A stretch of DNA of 64,000 nt from Microvirga sp. 3-52 (lineage in GTDB: Bacteria > Pseudomonadota > Alphaproteobacteria > Rhizobiales > Beijerinckiaceae): positions 124,001 through 188,000 of the forward strand of contig NZ_JAHAMK010000002.1 of the NCBI RefSeq assembly GCF_018383585.1, given 5' to 3'. This document shows positions 29,780 to 50,022 of this stretch, in pieces. The position numbers and the translations under genes are program-made. The notes below the pieces were generated by a model. The model was not told the origin of the DNA, made no database searches, and saw only the letters and a list, made by a program, of their open reading frames with translations. The first letter of the stretch is position 1, and every line of letters begins with the position of its first letter.

Positions 29780-29962
29780 TTGTGACAGCCGAAAGACATC
29801 CTTTCGGGGGAATTCGCTGGTAACCTTTACAAGCTAGCCTGTTTTCACTTTTGTCCTCCGGGACAACGAACTGCCCTTTCCGTTTCCGTTTTGTTCACGT
29901 ATAAAAACGGCATGGGATATAGTGTAAAGAAACGCGAATCATCATCTCGGACCAAGGTCCCA

Positions 29963-32023
<2,061 letters not shown>

Positions 32024-32201: not shown

Positions 32202-32226
32202 GGAACCAACCTCGAGCCGGCACGTT
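32202..32226 (+). promoter_or_regulatory. EcfG-type general stress promoter of the sRNA beside parE
   Basis: GGAAC (32202-32206), 16 bases, then CGTT (32223-32226). This is an exact consensus match, with an expected start of transcription near 32233. Confidence 0.75.
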
Positions 32227-32232
32227 TTATGA

Positions 32233-32300
32233 ACTCACCGGCTCATTCTGCCCCCACGGGCCGGTACCTCAAAGGCTCCGTTATCGGGGCCTTATTTTTT
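32233..32300 (+). ncRNA. gsrN: GsrN-like stress-regulated small RNA, about 67 nt
   Basis: Downstream of the EcfG-type promoter the RNA would form a first stem-loop ACCGGC / GCCGGT (32237-32242 with 32260-32265), whose loop holds the unpaired run CUGCCCCCA. A second stem AAGGCUCC / GGGGCCUU (32272-32279 with 32286-32293) is followed by A and six Ts, a good intrinsic terminator. Caulobacter GsrN is a sigma-T-dependent sRNA with a C-rich loop that pairs with target ribosome-binding sites, and as I recall its gene lies by parE in several alphaproteobacteria. Position, promoter, size and loop all agree, so I call it GsrN-like. The 5' end is predicted, not measured. Confidence 0.65.
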
Positions 32301-32428: not shown

Positions 32429-34753
32429 TTGCCCAAACGTTCGAACACCGATCAGTCCAACGCCCTTCCCAGCCGGGAGGAGGTCGTCTCCTTCATTGCC
32501 GATGCCCAGGGCAAGGTCGGCAAGCGGGAGATCGCGCAGCGCTTCGGGATCAAGGGCAGTGATCGCATCTGGCTGAAGCAGATCCTCAAGGACCTGGAGA
32601 TTGACGGCATCGTCGACCGGAGGGGGAAGACGGTTCATAAGGCGGGCCAGTTGCCCCCGGTGGTGCTGGCCGACATTACCAAGCGGGACCGGGACGGCGA
32701 ACTGATCGCTGTTCCAACCGAGTGGGACGAGGAGGAGCACGGCTCCATCCCGACGATAATCGTCGTTTCGCCGCGCAAGCCGCGACCCGGCATGCCCGTG
32801 GCGGGCGTGGGCGACCGGGCACTGCTGCGGGTCGAGCCGCTCAAGCCCGGCGACATCCATCGCTATTCCGGCCGAGTGACCAAGATCATCGCCAAGAAGC
32901 AGGCGCAGGTGCTCGGCCTCTTCCGGGCCCTGCCCGAGGGCGGCGGAAGGCTCGTGCCAGTGGACAAGAAGGCACGCGATCAGGAACTGCAGATCAGGTC
33001 TGGCGACGAGAGCGAAGCCCGGGACGGCGACCTTGTCTCCGTGTCGGTCGTGAAGCACGGCCGCTTCGGCCTGCCCACGGCCAAGGTGAAGGAGCGGCTG
33101 GGGACGATCAAATCGGAAAAAGCCGTGAGCCTGATCGCGATCTACGCCCACAACATCCCCAATGAATTTCCCAAAGCCGTCCTCGAGGAGGCCGAGAAGG
33201 CACGCCCCGTATCGCTCGACGGCCGTGAGGATTGGCGCGATCTGCCCCTCGTCACCATCGACCCGCCGGATGCCAAGGATCACGACGACGCCGTCCATGC
33301 GGTTCCGGACGACGACCCGAACAATGCGGGTGGCACCATCCTCACTGTGGCGATTGCCGATGTCGCGGCCTATGTCCGGCCTGGTTCGGCCATGGACCTC
33401 GAGGCGCAGGAGCGAGGCAATTCCGTCTATTTCCCTGATCGAGTGGTCCCCATGCTGCCGGAGCGGATCTCCAACGATCTGTGCTCGTTGAGGCCGCGCG
33501 AAGACCGCCCTGCGCTTGCCGTGCGCATGGTGATCGGCCCGGACGGGAGGAAAATCCGCCACAGCTTCCACCGGATCATGATGCGCTCGGCGGAGAAGCT
33601 CTCCTATGGTCAGGCCCAGGCCGCCATCGATGGCAGGCCGGATGACGTAACGGGGCCGATCCTCGACACGATCCTGAAGCCCCTATGGGCCGCTTACGAA
33701 TTGGTGAAAAAGGCGCGCGACGTCCGTGAGCCGCTGTTCCTCGATCTGCCGGAGCGCAAGATCGTGCTCAATCCCGACGGCACCGTGGACAGGATCTTCG
33801 TGCCCGAACGGCTCGAGGCGCACAAGCTCATCGAGGAGTTCATGATCCTCGCCAATGTGGCGGCCGCCGAGAGCCTGGAAAAGGCCGAGTCCGACCTGAT
33901 CTACCGGGTCCACGACGAGCCGTCGCTCGAGAAGATGCGGGCTTTGAGCGAGGTGCTGGCGTCCATCGGCCTCAAGCTTCCTACCCAGGGAGCGCTGAAG
34001 CCGGAACTGTTCAACCGCATCCTGCGCAGCGTCGAGGATACGGAGCATCAGCTCTTCATCAACGAGGTGGTGCTGCGTTCGCAGTCGCAGGCCGAGTACT
34101 CGGCGGAGAATTACGGCCATTTCGGTCTGAACCTCCGCCGCTACGCCCACTTCACCTCACCGATCCGCCGCTACGCGGACCTCATCGTCCATCGCGCTCT
34201 GACAACCGCCCTCAAGCTCGGCAAGGACGGCCTGCCGCCGGACACCACCCGCGCGCAGCTGATCGAGATCAGCGCCAAGATCTCGGGCGCCGAGCGCCGC
34301 GCCATGGCGGCCGAGCGTGAGACAATCGACCGCCTGATCGCGCACTTCCTTGCGGACCGGATCGGGGCCACATTCAACGGACAGATCTCGGGCGTCTCGA
34401 AGGCGGGGCTCTTCATCAAGCTGAACGAGACCGGCGCGGACGGCTTCGTTCCGGCGGCCACCATCGGCGACGATTACTACCGCTACGACGAGAGAACCCA
34501 CTCGATGCGCGGCGACGATACGGGTGAAACGTATCGCCTCGGCGACAAGGTAGAGGTGAAGCTTGTCGAGGCTGCGCCCGTCGCCGGTGCACTGCGCTTC
34601 GAGATTCTCACCAAGGGCCGCTTCACCGGCAGGACGGGAGGCGCCAAGAAGGGCGGGCGGCGTCCGCCGCAGGGCTTCAAAGCAGGCAAGGCGCCCACGC
34701 CGAAGGGCCGCTCTCCGACCCGCGTGAAGGTCAAGCGGCGTGGGCGTGCCTGA
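32429..34753 (+). CDS. rnr: Ribonuclease R, 774 aa
   Basis: RNase R is a processive 3'-5' exoribonuclease that degrades structured RNA. An N-terminal helix-turn-helix-like segment (REEVVSFIADAQGKVGKREIAQRFGIKG) is followed by cold-shock domains, the RNB catalytic domain (TIDPPDAKDHDDAVHA with the Asp cluster, then YFPDRVVPMLPERISNDLCSLRP) and a C-terminal S1 domain. The tail is very basic (GGAKKGGRRPPQGFKAGKAP). The start is TTG 32429, because the conserved N-terminus begins there and no ATG is near. Confidence 0.95.
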   Translation: MPKRSNTDQSNALPSREEVVSFIADAQGKVGKREIAQRFGIKGSDRIWLKQILKDLEIDGIVDRRGKTVHKAGQLPPVVLADITKRDRDGELIAVPTEWDEEEHGSIPTIIVVSPRKPRPGMPVAGVGDRALLRVEPLKPGDIHRYSGRVTKIIAKKQAQVLGLFRALPEGGGRLVPVDKKARDQELQIRSGDESEARDGDLVSVSVVKHGRFGLPTAKVKERLGTIKSEKAVSLIAIYAHNIPNEFPKAVLEEAEKARPVSLDGREDWRDLPLVTIDPPDAKDHDDAVHAVPDDDPNNAGGTILTVAIADVAAYVRPGSAMDLEAQERGNSVYFPDRVVPMLPERISNDLCSLRPREDRPALAVRMVIGPDGRKIRHSFHRIMMRSAEKLSYGQAQAAIDGRPDDVTGPILDTILKPLWAAYELVKKARDVREPLFLDLPERKIVLNPDGTVDRIFVPERLEAHKLIEEFMILANVAAAESLEKAESDLIYRVHDEPSLEKMRALSEVLASIGLKLPTQGALKPELFNRILRSVEDTEHQLFINEVVLRSQSQAEYSAENYGHFGLNLRRYAHFTSPIRRYADLIVHRALTTALKLGKDGLPPDTTRAQLIEISAKISGAERRAMAAERETIDRLIAHFLADRIGATFNGQISGVSKAGLFIKLNETGADGFVPAATIGDDYYRYDERTHSMRGDDTGETYRLGDKVEVKLVEAAPVAGALRFEILTKGRFTGRTGGAKKGGRRPPQGFKAGKAPTPKGRSPTRVKVKRRGRA

Positions 34754-49870: not shown

Positions 49871-50022
49871 GCAGAAAACTGAAAAGAAGTGGTGGCCAGC
49901 TGGGGACAGCGTTGAGGAGGCAACGATCTGCCCCCAGGCTGGCCGAGCCCCCGAACTCCCAGGAGATGCGGCGGACCTGAGCATCCGTAGGGCATTACGT
50001 CCGCTTTAAGGCGGAGACTTGG
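49841..50022 (-). ncRNA. Candidate small RNA with an anti-Shine-Dalgarno loop
   Basis: On the minus strand a long stem (GGCCAG and CUGGGG arms, 49894-49909 with 49928-49944) carries an inner perfect hairpin CGUUG-CCUCCU-CAACG at 49910-49925, exposing CCUCCU, the complement of Shine-Dalgarno sequences. An upstream stem GCGGAC / GUCCGC is also present. The RNA ends in the intrinsic terminator GGCGCC-GAAA-GGCGCC (49851-49866) followed by UUUUGUUUU. CCUCC-loop sRNAs are known in alphaproteobacteria. It could instead be an attenuated leader of ade, which lies 190 bases downstream on the same strand. The 5' end is a guess. Confidence 0.6.

What the first reader, a model, noticed from the sequence alone, without database searches (positions are those of the whole stretch)
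32202..32300. GsrN-like general-stress small RNA beside parE
An exact EcfG-type promoter (GGAAC-N16-CGTT) is followed at the right distance by a 67-base region with two stem-loops. The first exposes CUGCCCCCA and the second is a clean intrinsic terminator with six Ts. No protein gene fits. In Caulobacter the stress sRNA GsrN is driven by the same sigma class and uses a C-rich loop to pair with ribosome-binding sites; I recall that its homologues sit near parE. This would extend that sRNA to this lineage.
Basis: partly seen in the sequence, partly recalled or inferred. Interest (0 to 1): 0.78.

Follow-up and report, generated by a model that had tools for sequence, protein, structure and literature searches.

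The report
Stress-controlled small RNA in Microvirga
A short non-coding RNA gene with a general-stress promoter and a strictly conserved C-rich loop is kept in nearly all Microvirga genomes examined and belongs to a small set of sister RNAs tied to the bacterium's main stress switch; it probably works like Caulobacter GsrN, but its targets must differ because the known target gene katG is missing here.

Summary
Window 32202-32300 has an exact EcfG-type promoter (GGAAC-N16-CGTT), a hairpin with a 13-nt unpaired loop AUUCUGCCCCCAC, and an intrinsic terminator. The promoter alone is no rarer than chance; conservation makes the case: 24 of 25 Microvirga genomes carry the unit, each with promoter and loop core. 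Over 52 aligned rows, 7 of 8 stem pairs show compensatory change. The GsrN idea is partly right. Proximity to parE as a GsrN trait is wrong: the GsrN paper's main text never mentions parE and uses proximity to phyR/nepR/ecfG. The constant neighbour here is rnr (24 of 24), not parE (17 of 24). But the same hairpin lies near phyR in 4 of 5 loci fetched from two other genera, and this genome's own GSR locus holds two further EcfG-driven C-rich hairpins. The window copy is thus one of at least four such RNAs here. katG, GsrN's proven target, is absent from this genome and 21 others of 25. No homology to Caulobacter GsrN was shown. Best reading: a GsrN-like trans-acting sRNA; targets unknown, expression untested.

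The parts
32202..32226 (+). EcfG-type promoter: -35 GGAAC (32202-32206), 16-nt spacer, -10 CGTT (32223-32226)
   Evidence: read directly; GGAAC and CGTT present in all 24 genus homologues; matches the GAAC-N16,17-C/GGTT consensus given for Methylobacterium (PMC4814048 passages)
32233..32300 (+). predicted sRNA of about 65-70 nt; the start is inferred from the -10 box, not mapped
   Evidence: fold z = -4.7; conserved in 24 of 25 genus genomes; model R1 92.6 bits, the window copy being one of the model's own sequences
32237..32265 (+). hairpin 1: stem 32237-32244/32258-32265, 13-nt loop 32245-32257 AUUCUGCCCCCAC (presumed target-pairing seed)
   Evidence: TCTGCCCCCAC invariant in 24 of 24; two-sided changes in 7 of 8 stem pairs over 52 rows
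32272..32300 (+). intrinsic terminator: stem 32272-32280/32285-32293, T-run 32295-32300
   Evidence: a hairpin with a T-rich tail follows in the 24 genus homologues while its letters vary
29891..32023 (+). parE, DNA topoisomerase IV subunit B, upstream neighbour (178 nt before the promoter)
   Evidence: TIGR01055 781 bits; within the 1.4-1.5 kb held upstream in 17 of 24 genus homologues
32429..34753 (+). rnr, ribonuclease R, downstream neighbour (constant)
   Evidence: TIGR02063 693 bits; downstream in 24 of 24 genus homologues, 189-235 nt from promoter to the extrapolated gene start in 21 of 24

Best explanation
[quoted passage not shown] When stress activates PhyR, NepR releases EcfG and the RNA is made; it ends at its own terminator. 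Its 13-nt unpaired loop (core UGCCCCC) most likely pairs with G-rich sites in several mRNAs and changes their translation or stability, as the C-rich loop of Caulobacter GsrN does. It is one of at least four EcfG-driven C-rich-loop RNAs in this Microvirga genome. Two of these still sit at the phyR-nepR-ecfG locus; the window copy lies before rnr. Shown here: the anatomy, the conservation, the covariation, the paralogues and the link of relatives to the GSR locus. Inferred: transcription, EcfG dependence, pairing in trans, any role in stress survival, and the direction of movement between loci. The PhyR-NepR-EcfG switch is established knowledge of the response.
For: Anatomy. Kept in 24 of 25 genus genomes, with promoter and loop core in all 24. 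Stem covariation on 52 rows: 25 cells with changes on both sides against 8.4 +/- 2.2 in shuffles, 0 of 500 as high. Same unit in other genera of the family: 18 of 149 genomes, 5 of 43 genera. Of five loci fetched from genera g170 and g175, four have it 0.2-2.5 kb from phyR, two of these with ecfG on the far side of phyR. In g170 it is next to a PRC-barrel gene; the same gene adjoins the GSR-locus copy in 25 of 25 Microvirga loci checked. The own genome carries phyR, nepR and ecfG-type genes. A second EcfG-driven copy lies on contig 35.
Against: No transcript data. The promoter motif is as frequent as chance genome-wide. The constant spacing to rnr would also fit a leader role. On close relatives alone the first hairpin shows no two-sided change, and only one pair does on 41 sequences. 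No conserved target site was found. In the three genus genomes that do have katG, the loop pairs with the stretch around its start no better than with shuffled letters. 131 of 149 family genomes gave no match under strict filters.
Confidence: 0.8

Rival explanations
1. The unit is a cis-acting leader of rnr: an EcfG promoter that raises RNase R under stress, with the terminator acting as a leaky or regulated attenuator and the loop as a sensor.
For: rnr follows in 24 of 24 genus homologues, 189-235 nt from promoter to gene in 21 of 24.
Against: The same promoter-loop-terminator unit occurs without rnr close by near phyR in other genera, in Salinarimonas, on contig 35 of this genome, as a second copy in M. 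aerophila and as a copy in M. aerilata. In one genus genome rnr lies 1266 nt away. The terminator is strong.
Confidence: 0.1
2. It is an orthologue of GsrN in the strict sense, with the same descent and the same core targets as in Caulobacter.
For: Same promoter class, exposed C-rich loop as the best conserved part, relatives near the GSR locus.
Against: In a sample of 385 class genomes only the own genome and one weak match were found (strict filters, and it is not shown which families the sample held); shorter RNA; katG not found in 22 of 25 genus genomes including this one. The published homologues outside Caulobacteraceae were mostly assigned by position, promoter and, for some, expression.
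Confidence: 0.06
3. It is only the terminator of parE plus a chance promoter match, with no RNA product of its own.
For: The promoter motif is common by chance; parE ends 178 nt upstream.
Against: Promoter and loop are kept in 24 of 24 homologues while the spacer varies, also in the 7 of 24 where parE was not found upstream; paralogues exist elsewhere with the same promoter.
Confidence: 0.03

Closest known systems
GsrN of Caulobacter crescentus (eLife 2018, PMC5869019; passages and section 14 read)
   Same: EcfG/SigT-class promoter; unpaired C-rich loop near the 5' end as the best conserved element; in C. crescentus too the gene lies away from the GSR locus
   Different: No sequence relation shown; about 65-70 nt against about 100 nt; loop has five Cs in a row against six; katG, the proven target, not found here; several EcfG-driven sister RNAs in one genome, which the GsrN text I read does not describe; processing and Hfq dependence unknown
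Predicted GsrN-like RNAs of Rhizobiaceae, Rhodopseudomonas and Bradyrhizobium (same paper, Figure 9 legend and section 14)
   Same: EcfG-type promoter, C-rich loop (stated for the Rhizobiaceae set), GSR-locus position; the position is met here by relatives and by two other copies in this genome
   Different: The window copy itself lies between parE and rnr; those sequences could not be compared here
RpoE2 (EcfG-class) sRNAs of Sinorhizobium meliloti (PMC3616915, passages only)
   Same: General-stress sigma motif predicted upstream of 23 sRNAs
   Different: No sequence link tested
Rfam RF00519 suhB/mmgR
   Same: Short stem with UGCCC in the loop, then terminator
   Different: 20.4 bits, far below the cut-off of 41; that it is not an EcfG-driven family is recalled, not from a call

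Membership tests
GsrN | Near-consensus EcfG/SigT promoter directly upstream | tested here: met
   Exact GGAAC-N16-CGTT; GGAAC and CGTT kept in 24 of 24 genus homologues
GsrN | Exposed C-rich loop near the 5' end, most conserved part of the RNA | tested here: met
GsrN | Proximity to the ecfG/nepR/phyR locus (criterion used in PMC5869019; C. crescentus itself is an exception) | tested here: not met
   Window copy lies between parE and rnr; phyR, a nepR and an ecfG-type gene are on contig 52, not contig 55. Met by relatives in g170 (2 of 2 loci) and g175 (2 of 3 loci fetched) and by two other copies in this genome
GsrN | Sequence homology to Caulobacteraceae GsrN | tested here: inconclusive
GsrN | katG mRNA as target | tested here: not met
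   katG (TIGR00198) not found in the own genome nor in 21 of the other 24 genus genomes; in the three that have it, no pairing better than shuffles
GsrN | About 100 nt, cleaved to a stable 51-54-nt 5' isoform; Hfq stabilises the full-length RNA | not testable with these tools
   Predicted length here only about 65-70 nt; no expression data
GsrN | Transcription dependent on EcfG/SigT | not testable with these tools
   No transcriptome held
suhB/mmgR (RF00519) | Score at or above the Rfam gathering cut-off (41 bits) | tested here: not met
   20.4 bits

The most novel reading that the evidence does not exclude
Microvirga runs its general stress response through a set of at least four EcfG-driven sister RNAs with different C-rich loops: the window copy before rnr, a copy on contig 35, and two at the phyR locus. 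The ancestral GSR-locus RNA was duplicated, one copy kept the UUCUGCCCCCAC loop before rnr, and the copy left at the GSR locus changed its loop, giving a divided seed repertoire in bacteria that mostly lack katG.
Probability: 0.5. Interest if true: 0.62.

Novelty: new variant of a known kind. Interest (0 to 1): 0.5.

Why it matters
GsrN is the only EcfG-driven sRNA that I read of here with a worked-out role in alphaproteobacterial stress survival. A defined set of loci with promoter and seed in Microvirga, Salinarimonas and related genera makes it testable whether C-rich GSR RNAs are a general arm of this response, whether one RNA has become several, and what they act on where katG is missing.

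Tried and rejected
Model R1 (with terminator) over the order gave 136 of 397 genomes with matches, the own one included. I inspected the 29 loci held from outside the own genome, L059-L087: 0 of 29 had the promoter pattern, and they look like unrelated terminators, so R1 counts outside the genus were dropped; matches without a locus were not inspected. In the own genome R1 listed 24 matches at E up to 10. Eight loci were inspected: C56 (end of a tRNA) and C39 were dropped as terminators; C32 has a similar 5' arm but no C-run and no promoter. Named hit L122 (UBP17 MAG) has no matching stem and is taken as chance.

The named scan required exact promoter and loop letters, so their invariance in alignment A2 is partly by construction; the independent test is the DNA search.

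Target search: TGGGGGCAGA occurs 41 times in four genomes against 14 for the reversed pattern. The excess may be codon use. After removing four self sites, all 37 others were fetched. Four lie just before a plausible start in one genome each (L259, L262, L274, L280). Two sites are shared between two genomes each (L252/L265, L253/L281), but inside long open frames on both strands, so coding conservation is the simpler reason. No target is proposed. Pairing around the katG start of the three genomes that have katG: no better than shuffles.

Not done: a target search over all 5' leaders, a tree of the hairpins, and a comparison with real GsrN sequences.

Full report
OBSERVATION. The sequence reads as stated: GGAAC (32202-32206), 16 nt, CGTT (32223-32226), then a hairpin and a terminator ending in six Ts at 32300. 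The RNA from 32234 folds at -28.7 kcal/mol, z = -4.7, with loop AUUCUGCCCCCAC unpaired. Rfam has no match here at its cut-offs; the best sub-threshold match is suhB/mmgR, 20.4 bits against 41. The promoter motif alone proves nothing: 153 matches in the genome against 182 for the reversed control.

ORGANISM AND CONSERVATION. A pattern scan of named genomes gave 40 stretches, 37 of them titled Microvirga, plus Salinarimonas ramus, Rhizobiales bacterium YIM 77505 and one chance-looking MAG hit. A DNA search that did not require the motifs found the unit in 24 of 25 genus genomes, own one included, and in 0 of 16 genomes from other families of the order. The loop core TCTGCCCCCAC is invariant in all 24.

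STRUCTURE. On 24 close sequences the first hairpin shows no two-sided change and the terminator two pairs with one. On 41 sequences one pair has a two-sided change. On 52 rows including paralogues and other genera, 85.2% of cells pair, 7 of 8 pairs show two-sided changes, and 25 cells show them against 8.4 +/- 2.2 in shuffles, 0 of 500 as high. That alignment was fitted to the structure and leans towards it; its outermost pair is unpaired in 39 of 52 rows; and two weak rows (L153:1198, L108:4470) look spurious. Read by eye, GGAAC is exact in 50 of 52 rows, CGTT in 50, and GCCCC stands in the loop in 48 (misses: two type-b rows and the two spurious ones).

NEIGHBOURS. rnr follows in 24 of 24 genus loci, at 189-235 nt in 21, and at 343, 375 and 1266 nt in the others; parE lies within the 1.4-1.5 kb held upstream in 17 of 24. 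Among the 40 named stretches rnr follows in 33; in one of the other seven (L110) the held sequence ends too soon. So 'beside rnr' is the stable description. ParE and RNase R were confirmed by NCBIfam and Pfam.

OTHER GENERA. A promoter-plus-hairpin model (R2, 41 sequences) matched 18 of 149 family genomes in 5 of 43 genera. In a sample of 385 class genomes it matched two: the own one, and one weak match without exact GGAAC or UGCCCC. In g170 (L170, L171) the RNA lies about 2.5 kb from phyR. In g175, L172 and L174 have it about 0.2 and 0.8 kb from the phyR match, while L179 shows no phyR but only 0.6 kb is held beyond the RNA, and an rnr lies 5.7 kb upstream; a fourth g175 genome was not examined for context. 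ecfG was found on the far side of phyR in L170 and L174. In M. aerophila a second copy lies 1.6 kb from an ecfG-type gene. In three g157 and two g168 loci no phyR or ecfG was found within flanks of about 7-8 kb. The label ecfG is mine: ECF sigma genes whose best NCBIfam model is NF009192 (some just below its cut-off), found by similarity to the one beside phyR in YIM 77505; PhyR is confirmed by NF006623 and Pfam, NepR by PF18557.

PARALOGUES IN THIS GENOME. A second EcfG-driven copy is on contig 35. At the GSR locus on contig 52 (phyR, nepR, ecfG) two further EcfG promoters are followed by C-rich hairpins and terminators. Type a has loop GAAUGCCCCCUU, beside a PRC-barrel gene. Type b has UCCUCCCC and UUCCCC in a long loop, just downstream of phyR. 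Type a was found in 25 of 41 genus genomes; of these 25 loci, 20 have the exact promoter pattern followed by UGCCCC, and 25 have the PRC-barrel gene nearby. The same gene adjoins the g170 GSR-locus RNA whose loop core equals the window's. Type b was seen in 6 of the 30 phyR loci held (48 of 60 genomes had a phyR match), in four genera. That the window type descends from the GSR-locus RNA is inference; no tree was made.

LITERATURE. From PMC5869019 I read passages and the whole of section 14: GsrN homologues are placed by EcfG-type promoter, expression and proximity to ecfG/nepR/phyR, with C. crescentus an exception in position; 'parE' occurs 0 times in the main text. The EcfG consensus GAAC-N16,17-C/GGTT is from passages of PMC4814048. 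S. meliloti has predicted RpoE2 motifs upstream of 23 sRNAs (passages of PMC3616915). Searches for sRNA work in Microvirga or for sister sRNAs in this response returned nothing on the point as far as their listings show; other searches, seen as listings: 5, 21, 62, 63, 64. Only open-licence papers are held, so absence there is weak evidence.

MECHANISM. The likely mode is pairing of the C-rich loop with G-rich mRNA sites, by analogy with GsrN, where 5' loop pairing to the katG leader was shown by compensatory mutations (passages). Here katG was not found in 22 of 25 genomes, the own one among them, so that circuit cannot be the conserved one. A scan for perfect 10-nt complements gave no convincing shared target.

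VERDICT. A real, conserved, EcfG-promoter sRNA gene, GsrN-like in build and probably in mode of action, not shown to be GsrN by descent, and one of several in its genome.

Noticed in passing
window 49889-49995 (-): Rfam EcpR1 (RF02500) match at 60.6 bits, just over its cut-off of 60. It happens to hold UGGGGGCAGA (49927-49936, -), a perfect 10-nt complement of the loop of the RNA studied here. It lies in a part that differs from the EcpR1 consensus, and none of the 19 loci scanned from the three other genomes had an EcpR1 match, so chance is likely; an RNA-RNA pairing is a lead only.
   Followed up: partly
L090, L091, L092 (own genome C54:49756-49829, C14:1465-1539, C53:17146-17219): Three further hairpin-terminator RNAs with loop core UGCCCCUAC but without an EcfG promoter; two share an upstream element AGAAC-Y-GTCA ... 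CCCGACAGACA. Possibly a related seed under another regulator.
   Followed up: partly
L185:8270 (+), own genome C52: EcfG-driven hairpin with a long loop holding UCCUCCCC and UUCCCC just downstream of phyR, nearly letter-identical in four genera; a candidate positional GsrN counterpart.
   Followed up: partly
own genome C52:59543, C40:20253, C60:44661, C70:15812: Four NepR-type matches over the Pfam cut-off and EcfG-type sigma genes on at least three contigs: the stress switch itself is multi-copy.
   Followed up: partly
L225, L226, L236 (phyR loci of more distant genera): EcfG promoters followed by large hairpins holding CCCCCUC near phyR, possibly further C-rich GSR RNAs.
   Followed up: no
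L002/L089, own genome C32:15754-15801: A diverged copy of the hairpin lacking the C-run and the promoter, just after a small ORF; perhaps a decayed copy.
   Followed up: no
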